This document shows positions 25,129 through 62,388 of a DNA stretch of 64,000 nt, one piece after another. The position numbers and the translations under genes are program-made. Each line of letters begins with the position of its first letter. Positions within the stretch are counted from its first letter, which is position 1. The notes below the pieces were generated by a model. The model had not been told where the DNA came from, made no database searches, and saw only the letters and a program-made list of their open reading frames with translations. The DNA comes from Scenedesmus sp. ARA3 (lineage: Eukaryota > Chlorophyta > Chlorophyceae > Sphaeropleales > Scenedesmaceae): NCBI GenBank assembly GCA_004335835.1, contig RWJK01001977.1, positions 188,335 to 252,334 of the forward strand, given 5' to 3'.

Positions 25129-25713
25129 ATGACAGTAACTATATTTCTGCTCTGCTTGCTGTTCAGCACGCTGGTTGCAGCTCAGACAGATGCAGCAGCA
25201 GGAACAGCACGGCTGACATGCTACAACGTGGACTGGCCCACTTCAGGGCCTACCACTGCTACTGCTACAAGCTGCCCCATCACGGAGGATGTCGACACCT
25301 GCGTTCGCTACCAGTTCACGTGCACAGAAGGCGACCGCAGCTGCTCAGGCGTCCCTGTCGGCACTACCAAATGGGCCTACACCTTTGTGTCTGCTGCAAC
25401 CTGTGAGACCATGAAGAATAACAACTTGACGTACCCCAACACCCTGTGCTGCTCAACAGACCTGTGCAACAGGCCAGACCCTGCTTTGGACCCCGACACA
25501 CGAGTAGTAGACAGCCCAGTGCTAATAATTGGCGCCCAGCCCTCTCCCAGCCCCAGCCCTGCCATTCCTGCAGCACCAGCCTCGCCAGCAGCGTCATCAC
25601 TGCTGCCAGCAGCGCCCATAGCAAAAGGCAGCGCAGGAAGGAGCAGCAGCAGCTTGTTGCTGCTGGCGGCGGCGGCAGTGACTGCGGCAGTGAATGGTGC
25701 CATTGGCATTTGA
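25129..25713 (+). CDS. Ly6/uPAR-like GPI-anchored cysteine-rich protein, gene 1
   Basis: Intronless, 194 residues. A signal peptide (LLCLLFSTLVAAQ) leads to one cysteine-rich domain of about 95 residues: a first Cys in LTCYNVDW, then DTCVRYQFTC, a Cys in RSCSGVP, ATCETM and the closing CCSTDLCNRPD. The CCxxDxCN ending and the spacing of the preceding cysteines are the signature of Ly6/uPAR (LU, three-finger) domains. A Pro/Ser/Ala linker with PSPSPSP follows, then a small-residue site and a hydrophobic C-terminal tail (SLLLLAAAAVTAAV), which is the pattern of a GPI attachment signal. The product is therefore expected on the outer cell surface; ligand and role are unknown. It has one extra Cys (SCPI) relative to its paralogues. 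Family membership is inferred from the motif and Cys order, not from a search. Confidence 0.8.
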   Translation: MTVTIFLLCLLFSTLVAAQTDAAAGTARLTCYNVDWPTSGPTTATATSCPITEDVDTCVRYQFTCTEGDRSCSGVPVGTTKWAYTFVSAATCETMKNNNLTYPNTLCCSTDLCNRPDPALDPDTRVVDSPVLIIGAQPSPSPSPAIPAAPASPAASSLLPAAPIAKGSAGRSSSSLLLLAAAAVTAAVNGAIGI

Positions 25714-25797
25714 GGACAGCTGCCTGAAGTAGAACAGCGTGGCGCATGCTGCACGTGTGCAGTCAGCACAATGCGGGCGATAGAATCAGCCGCTGAG

Positions 25798-25880
25798 GGG
25801 GGTCAGCCGTTGCTTGCCTGTTCTTGAGGCAAACCATAATCTTCACAGTCCTTGTGCTTAGCCTTCAAGGTGAAGTTAAG
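25798..25880 (-). repeat. Degenerate copy of the POP5 first exon and leader
   Basis: About 70 bases here resemble 24395-24465 (shared GTTGCTTGCCTGTTCTTGA and CCTTGTGCTTGCC-like blocks). The POP5 start codon is changed, so it is not a second functional start. The copy lies on the other side of the assembly gap, in the 3' flank of the first Ly6-like gene. Confidence 0.65.
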
Positions 25881-27651
25881 TAACCGGTGCTGGATCCGTA
25901 AGGGCTATAGCTGCTGCTCAGCAGCGCCAGTGTGGTTTGTTACGGAGGCTTGAAGTTTTTGAAGCGCACAATCCTGGCTTTGTAAGCATGACCATTGCAG
26001 CATGCAGTGGGTGAACATGAGAGTCCACGCATGACATGAAACACAAACCCCGTTGACAACAGCTATCAGCTTAACAACAGCAATCTTTGCGTGCTTGGCA
26101 TGCTCTTACGGAGGGGTTGTTTTGTTTGCAGGTCCCAGCTGGGCACCTGGTTTCAAATGGTTTCAAATGGTGTCAGAAGGGTAGAAGTGCTACCCGAAAT
26201 ACTATGCTACAGTAGTCTGTGATTTGCAGCGCTCTGCTGTTGCTGTGCACTGCTCTGTGGTTGCAGAACCCTGAGTAACACATGCCATGCTCGGTGCTTG
26301 TTTATAGCCAGCACACTCGCAGTGAAACACTGTTGGGTGTTTGTTTGAGTTTCTCCTGTTTTGATGGTGCTTGGTTACTGGCTCATGTGAGTACGGATTA
26401 TGGCCACCGCTGTGCTGCATCTGCATGTCCCTGATTGATGTGGCTCTGTGCTTGTTGCAGGATTGTTTATACTGGCGCGCTTTGCTTGCATTGCCTGTCG
26501 GATGTTTTGTGCTGTTGTTGGCTTGTGATGGCTTGCTTGTGCCTCAGTCTTGTCTTCCCTTTTGGGTGGGGGTGAAGGGCTAGGCTACACACGGCGCTGA
26601 CTGATAGACCTAACTGTGAGCTTCGTGGTGTGAACTACTACAGCTGCAGCATGCTGTGAGTTTGTTTAAATTCATGCTGTGAGTTGTGAGTTCAGGATGG
26701 GAAGGTGTTACAGCTTCTGTGTGTACGGCTGCTGTGGTCAAAGAGTCAGCCTGAGGCACTACGCTTCTGGGTTCAGCTGTTATAACAGTGTTCTGTTGAG
26801 TCAGCATAACAGTTGCAGCTGCAGGTTATGAAATGCCGTGAGTTGGCAGGTGTGAAGAAGAGAAAGAAAGTGTGTTGCGACGCCGTCAAGCGTGTGCAGA
26901 CGATTTGGCCGTCGAATGTCACAAGGTAACAAATCCAGTGCTGCAACTATCCCTGAGCATGACATGAGTTAGCCACGGTCATCATGATAGTATCATGATA
27001 GCATCATGATGTCATCATGATGCATGCACAGCGCTTGCTGCGGATGTAAGCTGAGCGGCTGTTATTATGTCCACAGTCTTCTACTAGAAATGCCTAGGGC
27101 ACGTGCAAGGTGCAGTTGCATCTGCACAGCAGTGCTGTGACGTAGAAGACAGTCTTCTACGGTCACCGGGTCCTGGCTGGGTGTGCGTGAGTGGTGAACA
27201 TGCTGTCTATGTTCAATGGTAGCTATATCTCTGCCCTTCAATGTGTGTTGATGTGTTTTTGAGGGTAAATTGCAGTGTTGTGGAACACAGTGCAGGGCAG
27301 TGCGATTGTAGAAGGTTTGTTGATACTGTTGCACTTGTGCAGCCCTTTCGTGCAAGAGCCCTAGTGTTTCAGAAGATAGCTTGCCGAGTCATGGTTGCAT
27401 GTCGCATACTCGGGCAGAAGCAAAGGTTCGACCTAAAACCACAGGTTGTCACTTGCTGCAGCTTGACATGTGTAAATGAGAGGTTGACGACGCGCCCTCC
27501 TACTGCGAGGCAGCTCAGATACACTCAGTCATCCCCATAACTTCTTTCAGTGTTGCTGTGTCGTGTCTCGAGACGCACGCCGGCAGCTGGGCGGGGACCT
27601 GGCGTGTTTCTTCCGCAACAGTCGCGATTCTTTGTTGCGCGAGGGCTGCAC
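25881..27651. other. Intergenic spacer between Ly6-like genes 1 and 2
   Basis: Less GC-rich than the intron-rich genes and nearly free of CAG tracts. A TGTAA at about 25981 may end the gene 1 transcript. A cluster of ATCATGAT palindromes lies at 26980-27026. No coding region is supported. Confidence 0.4.
26980..27026. repeat. Cluster of ATCATGAT palindromes
   Basis: Four to five overlapping copies of TCATGA/ATCATGAT within 47 bases, giving potential for alternative small hairpins. Function unknown. Confidence 0.6.
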
Positions 27652-27669
27652 GCTTTCGAGGCACGGAAC

Positions 27670-28474
27670 ATGATGCACCGTACGATGTTACGTCTGCTTG
27701 CGATTTACGTGCTGTCCAGCACGCTGGTTGCAGCTCAGGCAGACGCAGCAGCAGGTGCAGCAAGGCTGACATGCTACGATTCGGATACCGTCGGGGCCCC
27801 CTCCAGGCCCTACCACTGCTACTGCTACAAGCTTCCCCATCACGGTGGAAGCAGACACCTGCGTGCGCTACTCGTTCACCTGCATGGAAGACAACGGCTG
27901 CTCAGGCATCCCTGCCAACACCACCAAGTGGACTTACACCTTCGCGCCTGCTGCCAACTGTGAGTCCCTGAAAAGCAGCGGCAACAGCTGGGCGTACCAA
28001 AATGTCCTGTGCTGCTCATCAGACTTCTGCAACAAGCCTGAGTCTTCTCTGGACCCTGACACCACAGCAATATGCAGCCCAGTGGTGATCATTGGGGCCC
28101 AGCCACAGTCCCCTGCCAGCCCCAGCCCTGCTGCAGCAGCAGCGCCGTCACCCAGCCCACCAACAAGTGACAACGGCAGCACTCCAAGCCCACCACCAGC
28201 AGCAACACCATCTCCATCACCAGCAACACCCAGAGCATCACCAACACCAGCAGCAGCTGCTGGCGCAGGATCCAGCCCAGCACCTATTAGTGATGACAAG
28301 GCAGGCCCTGCTGTGGCAGCCAGCAGCGGCCCAAGTGCAGCAAAGATTGTCACAGAGATGCAGGGATCCACTGTCATGAGCGGCAAGGGCAATGCAAGTA
28401 GCGCAGGCAGTGTTAGCTGCAGCGTGTTGCTGCTGGCAGCGGCAGTGACTCTGGCAGGCGCCGCGTTGATGTGA
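27670..28474 (+). pseudogene. Ly6/uPAR-like gene 2, frameshifted
   Basis: The start at 27670 (or 27673) encodes a signal peptide ending STLVAAQAD and the first domain Cys in LTCYDSD. The frame is then lost at the GGGGCCCCC run near 27793-27801. One frame over, translation resumes as the rest of the same domain: ADTCVRYSFTC, GCSGIPANTTKW, NCESLKSSG and CCSSDFCNKPES, then a Pro/Ser-rich linker of about 100 residues and a hydrophobic GPI-type tail (SCSVLLLAAAVTLAGAALM). A single-base length error in the G/C run would explain this, so it may be a sequencing error rather than a true pseudogene. No GT-AG intron around the break restores the frame convincingly. Its linker is longer than in the paralogues. 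Confidence 0.7.
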
Positions 28475-28484
28475 GCGCAGCGGT

Positions 28485-28612
28485 GCTACCGCTAGTAGTA
28501 AATATGCTTCACAATCCGCAGTTGCGCTGCAAAGCGCCTGCAGAAAAGTACCGCTAGTAGTACAGCTGCTTTTCAACTGGCATTTGCGCTGCAAAGCGCC
28601 TGAAGAAAGGCT
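28485..28612. repeat. Tandem duplication of ~75 bp after Ly6-like gene 2
   Basis: TACCGCTAGTAGTA and TTGCGCTGCAAAGCGCCTG each occur twice at the same spacing. The GCGCTGCAAAGCGC core is an imperfect hairpin. It could be part of the 3' UTR. Confidence 0.65.
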
Positions 28613-29750
28613 TGCATGAGAGCAGCAGACTCTGCAACGAAGAGAGCATCTGCATAGCGCAGCAGGTGCATTTGATATGTGTTGCTGTTGCCAGCGCACG
28701 ATGCGGTGCTGTTTAGGCCTTGAGTTTTCAGCGTTGTGCCTTGTCCACTGCCTAAGGATATGATACACATTGGAAGTTTGATTCTGCCGCATGTGCACAT
28801 GCCTGCACGACATTGCATTGAAGGGCTGTTGACAATGATGTTGCAACTTGCATGTGAGCTGCCTACATGCTGTGGCCACATGGGCCACGTGATGTGTTGG
28901 TGAATGAGAATAGATGCTCATGCATGCACCCGCATCTACGCTCATCATGCACGCCTGAGCATACATGCATTGTATCATGCGCGGGCGTGTTGGAATGCTG
29001 CGCTTCATGTGACAAGGACGTCGCCCTTTGGTGGTTCACCAAAATTCCTTCCAGTTTTGTAAAGAGTTGCAGAATGCATCTCAAGTTGTGTGTCACACCC
29101 GCCAGCATCAGTTGTGTATTTGTAACGCACACAGCACGGCAAGCAGATTTCACTGGTGACATGCATGAAGCTCGGTAAACTTACAGACAGAATGCAGAAG
29201 CCAGCCCACTAAGCGTGTTCGGTGATGCTGCCGTTGCCACCGCTCCAACATGCTTGCAATGCTGTGCGGAGCTGCTCAAGACAGAGGATCAAGCCAGCAC
29301 ACGCATCCAAACCACTAGCTGCAGCTGTTGTCAATCACGACGAGGCGAGGGGCTCACGGCAAACCCTGCAGCAACGAGGCAAGTCCAGCGCAATTTCCCG
29401 CCTGATAAGTGTTAGCGTTGTGCGGTTGCTGCCAGAAACACACTTGAGCAGCTGCACGGAATGTTGACGTGACTTGCTTGCGGCATGTCCACAGAGCTCT
29501 GTGGAACCCTTCAAGGTGCACCAGCTGTTGCGGTAGTGGTATGCTCAATTCGAATTGGGTGGCGCTTCAATACTGTTCACTGCTATTCAAAATAACATTG
29601 AGTATCATAGCTTATAGTTTTATAGTTTTCTCGCAGCTTCTCCAGTCCCTTTTGAACGACCTTCTGTAACACCTTCGCATTCACCTTCAGACTTTCTGGC
29701 GAGCCCGGCAATACCTTCGTATAGCAGGCGAAGCTGCCTTCGCAAACCCC
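28613..29750. other. Intergenic spacer between Ly6-like genes 2 and 3
   Basis: No supported gene. TGTAA motifs near 29057 and 29119 may serve gene 2. The last 150 bases are AT-richer, with repeated ACCTTC/CTTCG words, and grade into the gene 3 promoter. Confidence 0.4.
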
Positions 29751-29758
29751 TATATAAG
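29751..29758 (+). promoter_or_regulatory. TATA box of Ly6-like gene 3
   Basis: TATATAAG lies about 147 bases before the start codon at 29898, in an AT-rich upstream segment. Position and sequence fit a canonical core promoter. Confidence 0.55.
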
Positions 29759-29897
29759 CTGTGTTTTGCGATGCCTTTGGTGAAGGATTGGCGACGTCGC
29801 ATGTTCGTGCAGTGATCTTATAGTGATACGACACTAGATTATCAGCAGGGCGCACTGCAAGCTTGCGAGGCAGCTTCAACACCACTGCAATTATAAG

Positions 29898-30968
29898 ATG
29901 ATGATACGTTTATTAGCGTTATGTTTGGTCGCCAGCACGCTGGTTGCAGCTCAAGCAGAGCCATCATCAGAAGCAGCAAGGCTGACCTGCTACAACGTGG
30001 ACTGGCCCAGAACAGGGCCTTCTCCTGGCCCCAGCACGGCTACTGCCACCAGCTTCCCAATCACGGCCGATTCAGACACCTGCGTGCGCTACTCGGCCAC
30101 CTGTGACAGCAACTGCGGAGAGGTTCCTGTCGGCACCACCGTATGGGTATATGGTGTCGTGTCTGCCGCAGACTGCGAAACCACGAAGAGCAACAGCTGG
30201 GCATACCAGAACGTCCAGTGCTGCTCAACTGACCTGTGCAACAAGCCGGACCCTGCACTGAATTCTGACACTACAGCAGTAGACAGCCCAGTGCTGATCA
30301 TGGAGGGGCAGCCCCCTGCCAGCCCTAGCCCTGACACTCCTGCAGCAGCAGCCTCGCCGTCACCCAGCCCAGCAGCAGCGTCATCACCGCTGCCAGAAGC
30401 AGCGAAAACGAACAGCAGCGCAGCAATGCTGACATGTTACAACGTGGTGTGGCCCGAGTCGGGCCCTTTGCCTGGCCCCAGCACGGCAACTGCTACCAGT
30501 TTCCCAATCACGGCGGATGTTGACACCTGCGTTCGCTACTCGTTCACCTGCGCAAAAGGTGACAGCAGTTGCTCAGGCTTCCCTGTCGGCACAACCAAAT
30601 GGGCCTACACCATCGTGTCTGCTGCAACCTGTGAATCCCTGAAAAGCAGCAGCATGGCATACAAAAACGTCCTCTGCTGCTCATCAGACCTGTGCAACAA
30701 GCCGGACCCTTCCCTGGACCCCGACACTACAGCAGTCGACAGCCCAGTGCTGATCATTGGAGCGCAGCCACAGTCCCCTGCCAGCCCCAGCCCTGCTGCA
30801 GCAGCAGCGCCGTCACCCATGGGTGGGCTGGTCAGCCCACCATCAGCGTCACCACTGTCAGCAGCAGCAGCAGCCAAAGCGACAAGCAGCGCAGGCAGGA
30901 GCGGCAGCAGCTTGCTGCTGCTGGCGGTGGCAGTAGCTGGGGCAGCACTTGGTGTTATGTGCATTTGA
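29898..30968 (+). CDS. Two-domain Ly6/uPAR-like GPI-anchored protein, gene 3
   Basis: Intronless, 356 residues. A signal peptide (LLALCLVASTLVAAQ) is followed by two LU-like domains separated by a Pro/Ser/Ala linker. Domain 1 (about residues 29-118) has eight Cys: LTCYNVDW, DTCVRYSATC, SNCGEVP, ADCETTK and CCSTDLCNKPD. Domain 2 (about 177-272) has LTCYNVVW, DTCVRYSFTC, SSCSGFP, ATCESLK and CCSSDLCNKPD. A second linker and a hydrophobic tail (SLLLLAVAVAGAALGV) suggest GPI anchoring at the cell surface. The tandem domains echo uPAR-like architecture. The second domain is closer in wording to genes 1 and 2 than to domain 1, suggesting domain shuffling or gene fusion within the cluster. Function unknown. 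Confidence 0.85.
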   Translation: MMIRLLALCLVASTLVAAQAEPSSEAARLTCYNVDWPRTGPSPGPSTATATSFPITADSDTCVRYSATCDSNCGEVPVGTTVWVYGVVSAADCETTKSNSWAYQNVQCCSTDLCNKPDPALNSDTTAVDSPVLIMEGQPPASPSPDTPAAAASPSPSPAAASSPLPEAAKTNSSAAMLTCYNVVWPESGPLPGPSTATATSFPITADVDTCVRYSFTCAKGDSSCSGFPVGTTKWAYTIVSAATCESLKSSSMAYKNVLCCSSDLCNKPDPSLDPDTTAVDSPVLIIGAQPQSPASPSPAAAAAPSPMGGLVSPPSASPLSAAAAAKATSSAGRSGSSLLLLAVAVAGAALGVMCI

Positions 30969-30971
30969 GGA

Positions 30972-31110
30972 CAGCTGCTGATGGCGTTGATGCTATGGGC
31001 GTAACATAATGACGAGCTGCGTGATCAAGGACGGCATGCTGATGGCGTTGATGCTATGGGCGTAGCTTGATGCGTAACATAATGATGAGCTGCGTGATCA
31101 AGGACAGTAC
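30972..31110. repeat. Direct repeat of ~56-68 bp after Ly6-like gene 3
   Basis: GCTGATGGCGTTGATGCTAT through GCTGCGTGATCAAGGAC occurs twice (about 30975-31030 and 31040-31108); the second copy has a short insertion. Located just past the stop codon, probably in the 3' UTR. Confidence 0.75.
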
Positions 31111-32542: not shown

Positions 32543-35190
32543 CTATTGTTGCTGCTGCCCAGCTTTGATATAAGCTGCCAGCTTCTCACACGCTGCATCC
32601 AGCTTGCTGTCCTCCTTACAAAAGCAAAACCGCACCAAGTTGTGTGGTCGCGCATCCGAGGCGTAAAACGCGCTCAGCGGGATCAATGTAACACCCGCCT
32701 CAACAGTCAGCCGCTTGCACAGCGCCACATCATCTTCCCCTGGCTTCAGCATGCTGCTCATGTCTGCTGTGAGGAAGTAGGTGCCTTGTGCCGGCAGCAC
32801 TGAGAGGCCTAAGGCTTCTAGCCGCGGCTGTAGCTGCTGCCGCTTGGCCTGCAGTTCTAGCCCAAGTCCCCTGCAGAGGCAGTGATGCGGGCGGCAAAGC
32901 CATGGCACGCAGCAGAGATCAGCAAAGCAAGAGGTCAGGTGATGAGGTGCAGCAGCAGCTGCTGCAGCACGGAGAGGCCCAGGGCTTCTAGCCGCGGCTG
33001 TAGCTGCTGCCGCTTGGCCTGCAGCTCTAGCCCAAGTCCCCTGAGGAGGCAGCAAGAACACAGTGACAGGCAGCACAGATCAGCAGATCAAGAGGCCCAG
33101 GGCTTCTAGCCGCAGCTGTAGCTGCTGCCGCTTGGCCTGCAGCTCTAGCCCAAGCTTCCTGAGGAAGCAGTTAATGCACGCAGCAAAGGCATGAAATGAG
33201 GCAGACGCGGCAGTGCTGTGGAAAGCGAGAACGCGGGGCAGCGCTGCACAAGCTGTGGGCTGCCCGCGGCGTGCAAACCTCTTGATTATGCGGCTGCTTG
33301 ACTGCAAGAAAAGACTTTGACAGGTCGCCATGACAGTGTACTTAAACGTAAACCGTCAAGCTGCAACTTTGCTGTTACATGCCATGGTACGTGACACTTT
33401 TGTAACACTTGCCCACCTGTAGAACCAGTCCGCCTCATCCAGGCCGTACGCCACTGCATGCTGCAGGTTGCTGGCCACTGTGGACACATGTGCACCCAGT
33501 GCTGGAATGTGTTTAATTGCAAATCTAACATGTTACATGACACTGTTGTGACAGGCTTACCTGTAGAACCAGTACGCCTCATTTAGGCCGTATGCAACAG
33601 CATGCTGCAGGTTGCTGGCCACTGTGGACACATGTGCACTCAGTGCTGGAATGTGTTTAATTGCAAATCTAACATGTTACATGACACTGTTGTGACATGG
33701 CCCACCTGTAGAACCAGTCCGCCTCATCCAGGCCGTATGCGACAGCATGCTGCAGGTTGCTGGCCACTGTGAAGACCAGGAACTGGTGCGCCTTGATGAT
33801 GGGGGCCAGCAGCTGCGCGGGTCCAGTCATCCAGCCCACCTGAATTGCAAAATGAGCAGCAGCAGCAGCAACAGCAGCAGGTGTGTTTCTTCACTATGTG
33901 GTACTGGTGCGCCTTGATTTTTGAGGCCAGCAGCTGAGCGCGGCCGGTCATCCAGCCCACATGGGCTGGAGAACAAAAGCAGCAGCAGATGCAGCAGCAG
34001 CAGCAGCAGCAGCAGCAACATTGAGGCATGTGTTTAGAATTTTGTACCACATTCATGTACAACTGCTGACAAGAAGACAACAAACATTGGCCGACAGCGC
34101 CCTCAAGCGCTTGTACTTGCACCCCTGGCAATTCAGCACACCATACTTATACCTGATGGCACCGAAGGGTCCTGCTGACGCTGCTGCTGCCGCCACCCAC
34201 CCTTCAAAGCCACACCTCACATCACAAATAAAGCAACAAACCAACCTTCCATGCAGTGAAGCTGAAGGTCTTGCCCGCGCTGCCGAGCCGTATTGTGCGC
34301 TCAGCCATGCCCGGCAGTGCCCGCAGCGACAGGTGCTGGTGCGGCTCAAACACCAGGTGCTCATACACCTCATCGGCTAGTGCGTAGGTGTTGTGGCGGG
34401 TGCAGAGGTCTGCGATGAACTGCAGCTCTTCACGCGTGAACACCTGCAGCAGGGTGAATGGCAGGCGCCCGGCAACAGTTGTGAGGGAGTGGTTTGCTGG
34501 CATGTGTGTGTGTATGCATGTGGCGGGTGCAGAGGTCAGCGATGAACTGCAGCTCCTCGTGCGTGAGTACCTGCGGTGCATTGAGGGCAGGCGGCGGCAG
34601 ACACGATCTGAGGGAGTGATGGCTGGTTGCCGGCATGTGTGTGCCTGTGGTGCGTATGCATGCTGATGTCACTACGGCTGTGTCTTGCTACTTGTTTTGC
34701 TTCGTGCCCTGTCCTGCCTTATTGCTTTTCTATGATAAACCGTTGCAGCTATGTTTCTCACCTTGCCCGTGGGGTTGTGTGGCGTGTTGACCAGGATGAA
34801 CTTTGTCTTGTCACTGAACGCCGCCTCCAGCTGCTGCCGCGGGATGTCCCAGTTGGGCGGCTGCAGCTGCACAGGCACCAGCTTCGCACCGACCTGCAGC
34901 GAGTGTAGCGACAAGTGCACCACACAGCAGCCACAGCCAAGACAGAGTCAGGCATGCGGGTGAAGGCAGCGGAAGTAAATCCCACTCGAAAGGCCGCTGC
35001 TGCACGGTGCTGTGAGCCGGGTGTATGGCAGCACACGTGTAAGCAATGGCAGCTCATGCAGCGATGACAGCGATGCTAGAAGCAATGCACACAAGACACC
35101 ACACTAACCGTCAGCCAAGCACCTCACCTGCTGTGCCATGCCTGCATAGCTGTCATACATGGGCTCAAACACCACCACCTGCGGCCAGGG

Positions 35191-60800: not shown

Positions 60801-61382
60801 GTGAGTATGTCTTTCGCATTCACCACCTGGTTTTTCGGCAGTTGGTTTTGAAAGTGGTTTTGAAAGTGTACCGATGTTTCAACTGCTGCTGCTGCTGCCG
60901 CGCATTGCGCATACACAGACATGCGGTCGATCTTGATGCAGCAGCATTTCAGACACAGCAATCAAGCTTGACCGCATGTCGTGTAGCTTGAGGTCCACCA
61001 CAATGTAGCATCCTGGTGGACCTCAAGCTGAGCGACATGCTGTCAATTTTGATTTGTGTGCTTGAAGCGCTGCTGCTGATGCTGATGCTGATACCAATGC
61101 GGCTTTGATACACTTTCTTCTTCTTTGTAGATTCGTTCTTATACTTTCATCACAAGCAGCACCGACAAACCCTCACAAGACACCTGATGCTGGTGGACCT
61201 GACGCCCACCAGCATGTGGCCAAATCTTACTCCTATCACCTGCTTCTGCTGTTGCTGCTGCTGCTGCTGCTGCTCCGGCACACCTCTTAACACAGGTGGC
61301 ACTGACAACCACCTTATCCTGGTTGACCTGAAGCCTAACGGCATTGACGGCACATCGTCGATCTGGGTTCCTGTACCTGAAA

Positions 61383-61416
<34 letters not shown>

Positions 61417-62388
61417 ACTTGCAGGCGGCACCGACAACCACCTCATCCTTGTTGACCTGAAGCCCAACGGTATCGACGGGGCGCGCGTGCAGACGGTGCT
61501 GGACCTCGTCAGCATCACACTCAACAAGAACAGCGTGCCAGGTACGCAGCAGTGTGCACAACCGTTGTTACATCTGCTTGCCAGAGCGAGCTTTGCAGCC
61601 AACATCCGCTACTAGAGCTTGCTGTGCAACTGGTGCCTGCACATGATGATTGACACCAAGCTGGCTGCAGCACTGTATCTTGTGTCGAATTGCAGTGATG
61701 CGGTTGTGCTGCTGTGTAGTTGTGCGTGGTGCAGTTGAGTACGGCTGTTGGCCTGGACCCAAATGTGCACACACCGCTGCTGCTGCTGCTGCAGGCGACA
61801 AGTCCGCAATGGTGCCGGGCGGCATGCGCATCGGCACGCCCGCGCTGACCACGCGTGGATTTAAGGAGGCGGAGTTTGTGCAGGTGGCTGACTTCATCGA
61901 CCGTGCAGTGAAGATCGCCGCCGATTGCCGCGACAAGACCCCAGCACCAGGTGGGTTTGGGGGTAAGGGGTAGGACAGCGTGTGGCATGCGGTATGTGCA
62001 TACTCCTGTGGTGTTGTCAGGGCAGGGCAGCTATCAACTGCTGGCTGTGTCGGCGTTGAACGCGTTCACGGGGTTTGTCGCATGCCGTGGCTGTGTGCTG
62101 GTGGGCTACGAGTGGGCTGTTGTTCGATGGAGGGCAACGGCAGACCATCTGGCAACGGTCATCCGTTGTACTACTGATGGATCCTCGCACAGTGTCATGA
62201 AGCTGGCTTTTCGTTTTTCCACTGCGTGCGTTGCTGACGAATCTGCTGCTGCTGCTGCTGCTGCTGCAGGCAAGCTGAAGGAGTTCAAGGCCTACATGGC
62301 TGCCGAGGGCGAGCAGCGGCAAGACATTGCGCAGCTGCGGCAGGAGGTGGAGGCCCTGGCCACATCATTCCCTATGCCAGGACTGTAA
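57119..62388 (+). CDS. Serine hydroxymethyltransferase, organellar
   Basis: Eleven exons in phase (57119-57218, 57371-57462, 57846-57955, 58372-58477, 58981-59150, 59516-59652, 60039-60232, 60601-60760, 61425-61541, 61795-61950, 62270-62388) give about 486 residues. It interconverts serine + tetrahydrofolate and glycine + methylene-tetrahydrofolate with PLP. Markers: [66 protein letters not shown] and [15 protein letters not shown], where the Lys (about residue 277) binds PLP. The C-terminal part has [15 protein letters not shown] and [14 protein letters not shown]. The first about 32 residues ([13 protein letters not shown]) look like a transit peptide, so plastid or mitochondrion is likely. 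Copies of exon parts fill several introns. Confidence 0.93.
58605..58940 (+). repeat. Three copies of the SHMT exon 5 start
   Basis: The block encoding [20 protein letters not shown] recurs at about 58614-58675, 58735-58795 and 58855-58925 before the true exon at 58981. The unit of about 115 bases also carries the CGCTGATAGCTTACACCTGT intron segment, so exon plus intron duplicated together. Confidence 0.85.
59196..59335 (+). repeat. Copy of SHMT exon 5 end plus a short tandem repeat
   Basis: 59196-59272 repeats the exon 5 end ([20 protein letters not shown]) with a stop replacing a Lys and a one-base shift. It is followed by GTCGCCGCTGTAGCAACAGC twice. Confidence 0.75.
59915..60000 (+). repeat. 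Copy of the SHMT exon 7 start
   Basis: [20 protein letters not shown] is re-encoded behind a CTTGCAG acceptor, ending abruptly after GVVP. A copy of the exon 7 end ([20 protein letters not shown]) lies at about 60300-60370, giving the exon a flanking half on each side. Confidence 0.8.
61165..61355 (+). repeat. Copies of SHMT exon 9 start in intron 8
   Basis: [19 protein letters not shown] is re-encoded at about 61290-61350 (behind AACACAG); a weaker copy is at 61185-61215. The true exon begins at 61425. Confidence 0.75.

What the first reader, a model, noticed from the sequence alone, without database searches (positions are those of the whole stretch)
25129..30968. Cluster of Ly6/uPAR-like (LU, three-finger-type) GPI-anchored proteins in a green alga
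Seen: three tandem intronless genes encode signal peptide, one or two Cys-rich domains with the order C - CxxxxxxC - C - C - CCxxDxCN, a Pro/Ser linker and a GPI-type hydrophobic tail. Known: CCxxDxCN with this Cys order is the classical LU-domain ending, a fold discussed almost only for animals (Ly6, CD59, uPAR, BMP/activin receptor ectodomains). Inference: this may be an algal surface-protein family of the same fold, by descent, transfer or convergence. Roles in mating, adhesion or defence are all open.
Basis: partly seen in the sequence, partly recalled or inferred. Interest (0 to 1): 0.88.

Follow-up and report, generated by a model that had tools for sequence, protein, structure and literature searches.

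The report
Algal three-finger-like surface protein family
A photosynthetic alga carries a sizeable family of probable cell-surface proteins whose cysteine-rich heads are predicted to fold like the three-finger domains known from animal receptors and snake toxins, which would mean this recognition fold is not confined to animals.

The parts
25129..25713 (+). gene A, 194 aa, single exon, one three-finger-like domain
   Evidence: relative P0003 94% identical over 94% of a 140-aa query from A
25129..25185 (+). gene A: hydrophobic N-terminal signal peptide (to ...VAAQ, cleavage inferred)
   Evidence: best 12-mer hydropathy 2.86; no predictor run
25207..25509 (+). gene A: Cys-rich domain (residues 27-127)
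   Evidence: alone: Toxin_TOLIP E 0.011, DUF7773 0.022, CD59 0.12, Activin_recp 0.14, all below cut-off
25510..25710 (+). gene A: Pro/Ser/Ala linker and GPI-type hydrophobic tail
   Evidence: best C-terminal 17-mer hydropathy 2.12, no charge in the last 17 residues
27670..27963 (+). gene B: frame holding the start, signal peptide and first domain Cys; leaves the domain frame before the second Cys
27785..28474 (+). gene B: frame holding the rest of the domain, Pro/Ser/Ala linker and GPI-type tail
   Evidence: CCSSDFCN at 28010-28033; Activin_recp E 0.04, below cut-off
29898..30968 (+). gene C, 356 aa, single exon, two three-finger-like domains
   Evidence: Activin_recp 28.3 bits vs cut-off 20.9
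29898..29954 (+). gene C: hydrophobic signal peptide (cleavage inferred)
   Evidence: best 12-mer hydropathy 2.67
29976..30281 (+). gene C: domain 1 (residues 27-128)
   Evidence: Activin_recp E 0.05, below cut-off
30282..30422 (+). gene C: Pro/Ser/Ala linker between the domains
30423..30737 (+). gene C: domain 2 (residues 176-280); 30420-30743 was the stretch modelled
   Evidence: AlphaFold2 pLDDT 81.8, pTM 0.71, best of five; VIA-align 50 of 50 listed entries three-finger
30738..30965 (+). gene C: Pro/Ser/Ala linker and GPI-type tail
   Evidence: best C-terminal 17-mer hydropathy 2.64, no charge in the last 17 residues

Best explanation
These are algal cell-surface proteins. Each has a signal peptide, one or two disulfide-stabilised three-finger (LU-like) heads, a Pro/Ser/Ala stalk of the hydroxyproline-rich glycoprotein type, and a GPI anchor. 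The head keeps six of the LU cysteines (LU bonds 1-5, 7-8 and 9-10 by position), ends in the LU-type CCxxxxCN, and carries an optional extra disulfide near the tip of finger 2. By analogy with LU domains, the fingers bind a partner at the cell surface, making them recognition or adhesion heads held off the membrane. Shown: gene anatomy, Cys pattern, family expansion, purifying selection. Predicted: the fold. Inferred: disulfide pairing, GPI anchoring, stalk glycosylation and ligand binding. The recognition role itself I put at about 0.45.
For: Pfam: protein C scores Activin_recp 28.3 bits (cut-off 20.9); of seven families listed for C at E<=10, four are three-finger families and one is DUF7773. 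Of 19 single domains, 13 hit Activin_recp and 10 Toxin_TOLIP at E<=1, against 0 and 2 of 38 Cys-preserving shuffles of the same 19 (made). PDB: 4 of 4 phmmer hits for protein C are three-finger toxins, best E 0.015; 4 of 5 for protein A are three-finger or CD59, best E 0.0033; 6 of 7 for the family profile, best E 0.066. Model: strands 3-10, 21-29, 35-43, 59-67, helix 68-76, strand 81-87, matching LU strands A-D, a helical E and F as described in PMC6600238 (section read). VIA-align: all 50 listed entries are three-finger proteins, single-domain ones aligned over most or all of their length. Cys parity: of 22 complete rows, 18 have 8 core Cys and 4 lack both C3 and C4; none lacks only one (with the sequences). 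All 26 genome domains end CCx4CN and then x-Pro. dN/dS 0.33-0.36.
Confidence: 0.7

Rival explanations
1. Convergence on the fold: an independent algal Cys-rich domain has reached a three-finger-like arrangement and a CCxxxxCN ending without common descent with animal LU domains. (Compatible with the best explanation; it concerns origin.)
For: Only six of the LU Cys are kept by position; LU bonds 2-3 and 4-6 have no counterpart (against the pattern in PMC6600238). Sequence similarity rests largely on Cys spacing and the C-terminal motif. The Asn after the last Cys may be a structural need of the loop.
Against: The whole package recurs: Cys order, CN in 26 of 26 genome domains, helical strand E, GPI-type tail. 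Real domains out-score 38 Cys-preserving shuffles.
Confidence: 0.45
2. A different Cys-rich fold: the best model is a low-depth artefact and the domain pairs its cysteines otherwise.
For: Four of five models below pLDDT 63; Foldseek E no better than 0.43; weak second model; ET module gives the best single-domain Pfam E.
Against: 50 of 50 listed VIA entries three-finger, 38 of 50 for the weak second model (class by title, some by recall), Pfam and PDB hits to the same superfamily.
Confidence: 0.2
3. Structural wall or matrix proteins: the Cys-rich head cross-links hydroxyproline-rich glycoproteins and does not recognise a specific partner.
For: Pro/Ser/Ala linkers with SP and PS dipeptides; long Gln/Ser/Ala linkers between domains in contig C1328; a pherophorin-type match in the genome.
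Against: By analogy, conserved cores with variable finger 1 and multi-domain arrays look like LU recognition proteins; GPI-type tails would hold them at the membrane, not in the wall.
Confidence: 0.25
4. Horizontal transfer from an animal into an algal ancestor, followed by expansion.
For: PMC6600238 and PMC11595613 discuss the LU domain in metazoans only, in what I saw of them.
Against: No close animal sequence in the PDB: best E 0.0033. Paralogs are 23-43% identical to C domain 2, which speaks for an old family. Window genes lack the LU intron at the loop-2 tip.
Confidence: 0.1
5. Secreted defence proteins comparable in fold to three-finger venom components, acting away from the cell.
For: Weak best matches among venom three-finger proteins.
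Against: GPI-type tails in the three window genes and, by eye, in relatives P0002, P0003 and contig C71.
Confidence: 0.05

Closest known systems
Ly6/uPAR (LU) GPI-anchored proteins of animals, e.g. CD59, uPAR domain 3, GPIHBP1
   Different: Six core Cys plus an optional finger-2 pair in place of ten; LU bonds 2-3 and 4-6 absent by position; Pro/Ser stalk; single-exon genes in the window; longer domains in most paralogs (up to 158 residues from C1 to CN); host is an alga
Activin/BMP/TGF-beta receptor ectodomains (PF01064)
   Same: Best Pfam family for protein C, 28.3 bits vs cut-off 20.9; P0004 21.7 bits
   Different: No kinase or transmembrane receptor architecture in the window genes; tails are GPI-type; different Cys set; single window domains below cut-off
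Long-chain three-finger neurotoxins of snakes
   Different: Secreted, anchorless, animal, and (recalled) retain LU bond 4-6; the loop-2 bond is presumably independent
ET module (PF01684)
   Same: Best single-domain Pfam E-value, 0.00038, but in 2 of 19 domains only; P0004 E 0.042 over its CC-to-CN end
   Different: Minority and below cut-off where bits were shown (P0004, 14.6 vs 25); relation of this family to LU domains not checked
Pherophorins and other hydroxyproline-rich glycoproteins of green algae
   Same: Pro/Ser stalk with a Cys-bearing globular head (recalled architecture)
   Different: No Pfam match of these heads to the pherophorin family

Membership tests
Ly6/uPAR (LU) domain family | Ten cysteines bonded 1-5, 2-3, 4-6, 7-8, 9-10 (PMC6600238, section read) | tested here: not met
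   No row has the ten: of 22 complete rows, 18 have 8 core Cys and 4 have 6 (with the sequences). The review records frequent loss of 2-3 and rare loss of 7-8; I saw no mention of loss of 4-6 in the parts seen.
Ly6/uPAR (LU) domain family | Asn directly after the last Cys in CCxxxxCN | tested here: met
   Invariant in 19 of 19 rows of A1, 23 of 23 of A2; 26 of 26 genome domains, which were partly found by this motif. P0008 has Lys there and P0007 has lost the Cys before it.
Ly6/uPAR (LU) domain family | Three-finger fold, six strands A-F from a Cys core | tested here: met
Ly6/uPAR (LU) domain family | Profile match above curated Pfam cut-off | tested here: inconclusive
   Whole protein C passes Activin_recp (28.3 vs 20.9 bits) and P0004 just passes (21.7). 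The four window domains alone all fall below (best 18.1 bits). UPAR_LY6 itself: 3 of 19 single domains at E<=1, best E 0.0052.
Ly6/uPAR (LU) domain family | 60-90 residues | tested here: inconclusive
   From C1 to CN: 84, 85 and 88 residues for A, C1 and C2 (3 of 3 fit); of 14 paralog rows of A1, 3 fit and 11 are longer, 91-158.
Ly6/uPAR (LU) domain family | Disulfide pairing by experiment | not testable with these tools
   No coordinates or chemistry available; pairing inferred from Cys parity and strand positions.
Ly6/uPAR (LU) domain family | Typical three-exon gene with an intron at the loop-2 tip | tested here: not met
   A and C are single-exon across the domains. Typical, not strictly defining.
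TGF-beta/activin receptor family | Transmembrane segment followed by a Ser/Thr kinase | tested here: not met
   A and C end in GPI-type tails with nothing downstream; no kinase among their Pfam hits.
Pherophorin family (PF12499) | Profile match | tested here: not met
   Not among Pfam hits of the window proteins (E<=10) or of 19 domains (E<=1), though one match exists elsewhere in the genome.
GPI-anchored proteins | Cleaved N-terminal signal and C-terminal anchor attached | tested here: inconclusive
   Hydropathy and charge fit in A, C and the B tail; no predictor or biochemistry.

The most novel reading that the evidence does not exclude
The three-finger (LU) fold is not an animal invention. 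Green algae hold an old, expanded family with a six-cysteine core (LU bonds 1-5, 7-8, 9-10) and a switchable finger-2 disulfide. It serves as GPI-anchored recognition heads on glycoprotein stalks, in arrays of about five domains, and perhaps in mosaic extracellular proteins beside leucine-rich-repeat and Ig-like regions (contig C1243, weak below-cut-off matches, gene model unproven). The six-cysteine form would then be a candidate ancestral or sister state of animal LU domains and TGF-beta receptor ectodomains.
Probability: 0.3. Interest if true: 0.87.

Novelty: new variant of a known kind. Interest (0 to 1): 0.72.

Why it matters
A review and a research paper discuss LU/three-finger domains as metazoan: 'widespread in the Metazoa kingdom' (PMC6600238, conclusions read; [quoted passage not shown] A real three-finger family in a green alga would move the origin of a fold central to TGF-beta receptors, complement control, fertilisation and venoms far back, or give a clean case of convergence. 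The paired presence or absence of the finger-2 disulfide, and the missing LU bond 4-6, make the minimal disulfide requirement of the fold testable. [quoted passage not shown] a mosaic such as C1243 would bear on that if it is one gene. For algal biologists it is a candidate set for cell-surface recognition.

Tried and rejected
Animal contamination: rejected. The paralog contig C1328 carries chlorophyll-binding exons at 13.5-16.4 kb beside LU-like domains at 3.7-7.0 kb.

Chance Cys pattern or random ORF: rejected and by dN/dS.

Unrelated algal Cys-rich family: no Pfam support. ET module gave 2 of 19 hits with the best single-domain E (0.00038); not pursued, its relation to LU domains unchecked. 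The remaining non-LU families had one member each.

Viral origin: the BFVD structure search gave no match at E<=0.001 (85 at E<=10; the names shown tell little). The IMG/VR scan could not be run with this alignment.

Genome search with PF01064: nothing, controls silent, uninformative.

Wider search for homologues: three protein searches gave 2, 2 and 8 hits, all from sources 'jgi' or 'lgn' without organism names, so the spread among named green algae is untested here. Literature: ten searches of open-licence PMC papers. No listed title is about LU or three-finger domains in algae. One search was too broad (8 of 9,022 listed), one search listed 12 of 33, and PMC8914287 was not opened. Automatic database annotation of such algal proteins may exist; I could not check. 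The species was not identified.

Limits of the Cys count: 22 rows are 20 of the 26 genome domains plus P0001 and P0002. Left out: B, four C711 domains (one of them, row 23, cut short by me) and the first C1176 domain. By eye three of those C711 domains have 8 Cys (one across a frame break) and one has 9; the C1176 one is unclear. Rows 11, 12, 21 and 22 are shifted in the alignment and were counted from their sequences. The Cys-preserving shuffles were first scanned as 19 of 38 and completed on checking.
Full report
WHAT IS THERE. Three tandem + strand genes lie at 25129-30968. A (25129-25713, 194 aa) and C (29898-30968, 356 aa) are uninterrupted from ATG to stop. Each begins with a hydrophobic stretch and ends in an uncharged hydrophobic tail behind a Pro/Ser/Ala linker. 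A has one Cys-rich domain, C has two. B is damaged in this assembly: start, signal peptide and first domain Cys are in one frame (27670-27963), the rest of the domain and the tail in another (27785-28474). The second part is stop-free with dN/dS 0.30-0.64 against the others. Contig C711, a paralog locus, seems to show a similar frame break (by eye), so an assembly indel is about as likely as a pseudogene. P0002, from a metagenome, is an uninterrupted protein whose tail resembles that of B (by eye).

NOT CHANCE. CCx4CN appears four times in the six frames of 64 kb, always in these genes. A stricter Cys pattern matched 6 overlapping times in the window and 0 times in 200 single-base shuffles; all 6 are in these genes. 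Domain dN/dS among A, C1 and C2 is 0.33-0.36.

A FAMILY IN AN ALGAL GENOME. The assembly has 87.27 Mb in 1567 contigs. Searches with protein C and with seven single domains, and reading of the ORFs, give at least 26 domains on 9 contigs: C1552 (the window) 4, C711 5, C1345 5, C1328 3, C1243 2, C1479 2, C1176 2, C71 2, C55 1. The recount found 27 motif sites; I dropped one, on the other strand of the C71 locus, as no domain precedes it. C1328 also carries four chlorophyll-binding exon matches at 13.5-16.4 kb, so the family belongs to the photosynthetic host. One pherophorin-type match fits a green alga; the restriction of that family to green algae is recalled. Architectures vary: GPI-tailed single or double heads (window, C71; P0002, P0003), long Gln/Ser/Ala linkers (C1328), arrays of five (C711, C1345). 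On C1243 one ORF with leucine-rich-repeat hits (best E 6.8e-7, below cut-off), two LU-like domains and two ORFs with weak Ig-like hits (E 0.00027 and 0.0069, below cut-off) lie on one strand within 7 kb. That this is one mosaic gene is inference.

FOLD. Pfam: protein C reaches Activin_recp at 28.3 bits (cut-off 20.9); its other six hits at E<=10 (Toxin_TOLIP, CD59, DUF7773, HPIP_like, Toxin_cobra-type, ZZ) and all hits of A and of the B piece are below cut-off. Taken singly, the four window domains stay below every cut-off, best 18.1 bits. For 19 single domains, 13 hit Activin_recp, 10 Toxin_TOLIP, 3 CD59 and 3 UPAR_LY6 at E<=1, while the single best E-value, 0.00038, is for ET module in 2 of 19. 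The 38 Cys-preserving shuffles, two of each domain (half also keeping the final Asn), gave 0, 2, 1 and 1. Against the PDB the profile's hits are 6 of 7 three-finger, best E 0.066; a profile of 19 of the shuffles also gave 2 of 4 GPIHBP1 at E 3.5 and 6.9. So the similarity is real but thin, and Cys spacing carries part of it. Further phmmer searches: protein C 4 of 4 three-finger (best E 0.015); protein A 4 of 5 (best E 0.0033); a C1328 domain 1 of 1 (E 0.24); the C55 domain 1 of 3 (E 0.49, the other two Ras-type). Among the metagenome relatives, 5 of 8 hit three-finger families at E<=1; P0006-P0008 hit nothing.

CYSTEINES. C1, C2, C5, C6, C7, C8 and the Asn are invariant in 19 rows. C3 and C4 behave as a unit in the 22 complete rows counted: 18 have 8 core Cys and 4 have 6 with both missing; none lacks one only (read with the sequences; which domains were left out is told under Tried and rejected). 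So C3-C4 is probably a disulfide near the tip of finger 2, and the core is probably C1-C2, C5-C6, C7-C8, equal by position to LU bonds 1-5, 7-8 and 9-10. I had no coordinates to check this. LU bonds 2-3 and 4-6 have no counterpart. Loss of 2-3 is common and of 7-8 rare in animals; I saw no mention of loss of 4-6 in the parts read. Exceptions: A has an extra Cys; among the metagenome relatives P0004 domain 2 lacks C2 (5 Cys), P0004 domain 1 has C4 without C3 and may be cut at its start, P0007 lacks C8, and P0008 has 7 Cys and no Asn.

HOW IT LIKELY WORKS. By anatomy the protein would be secreted into the ER, oxidised, glycosylated on the Pro/Ser stalk, and moved to a GPI anchor that leaves the three-finger head outside the membrane. 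LU loops and the concave sheet face generally bind proteins (PMC6600238). I therefore favour a surface recognition or adhesion role, with expansion and variable finger 1 as signs of diversification. Mating, colony adhesion and defence cannot be told apart here.

MEMBERSHIP. The LU Cys network was tested and not met, so I do not file it as a Ly6/uPAR member. It is LU-like in predicted fold, in the CCxxxxCN ending and in architecture. Descent, convergence and transfer remain open; I lean to an old relationship or convergence over recent transfer, because identity is low and the family is internally diverse.

LITERATURE. Ten searches of open-licence PMC papers listed no title on algal LU domains. 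PMC6600238: abstract lines, passages and two sections seen. PMC11595613, PMC4839075 and PMC10267171: passages only (for PMC4839075 only reference-list lines matched). The rest: search listings only.

Noticed in passing
G000 contig C1243 (L019:526-7001, - strand): One ORF with leucine-rich-repeat hits, two LU-like domains and two ORFs with weak Bact_surface_Ig-like hits, the LRR and Ig-like hits below cut-off, on one strand within 7 kb: possibly one mosaic extracellular gene.
   Followed up: partly
L018:4443-4531 (contig C711): What looks by eye like a frame break inside an LU-like domain, similar to that in gene B, suggesting residual indels in the assembly.
   Followed up: no
window 30975-31110: An imperfect direct repeat of about 60 bases just behind gene C (by eye).
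   Followed up: no
P0003 against window 25207-25509: P0003, 94% identical to protein A, carries a five-residue insertion in finger 2 before the GTTKW motif, a possible allele or close species variant.
   Followed up: no
domains matching PF01684 and P0004 residues 154-193: ET module, a Cys-rich Pfam family, gives the best single-domain E-value (0.00038, 2 of 19); whether that family is itself three-finger-like was not checked.
   Followed up: no
window 32543-33076 (-): ORF resembling the C-terminal part of an aminotransferase of the kynurenine type (by eye, recalled; not tested).
   Followed up: no
window 61109-62065: ORFs resembling serine hydroxymethyltransferase or its antisense (by eye, recalled; not tested).
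   Followed up: no
L018:1306-2247 and P0008 residues 1-115: Unrecognised extracellular-looking regions upstream of LU-like domains, without Pfam hits.
   Followed up: no
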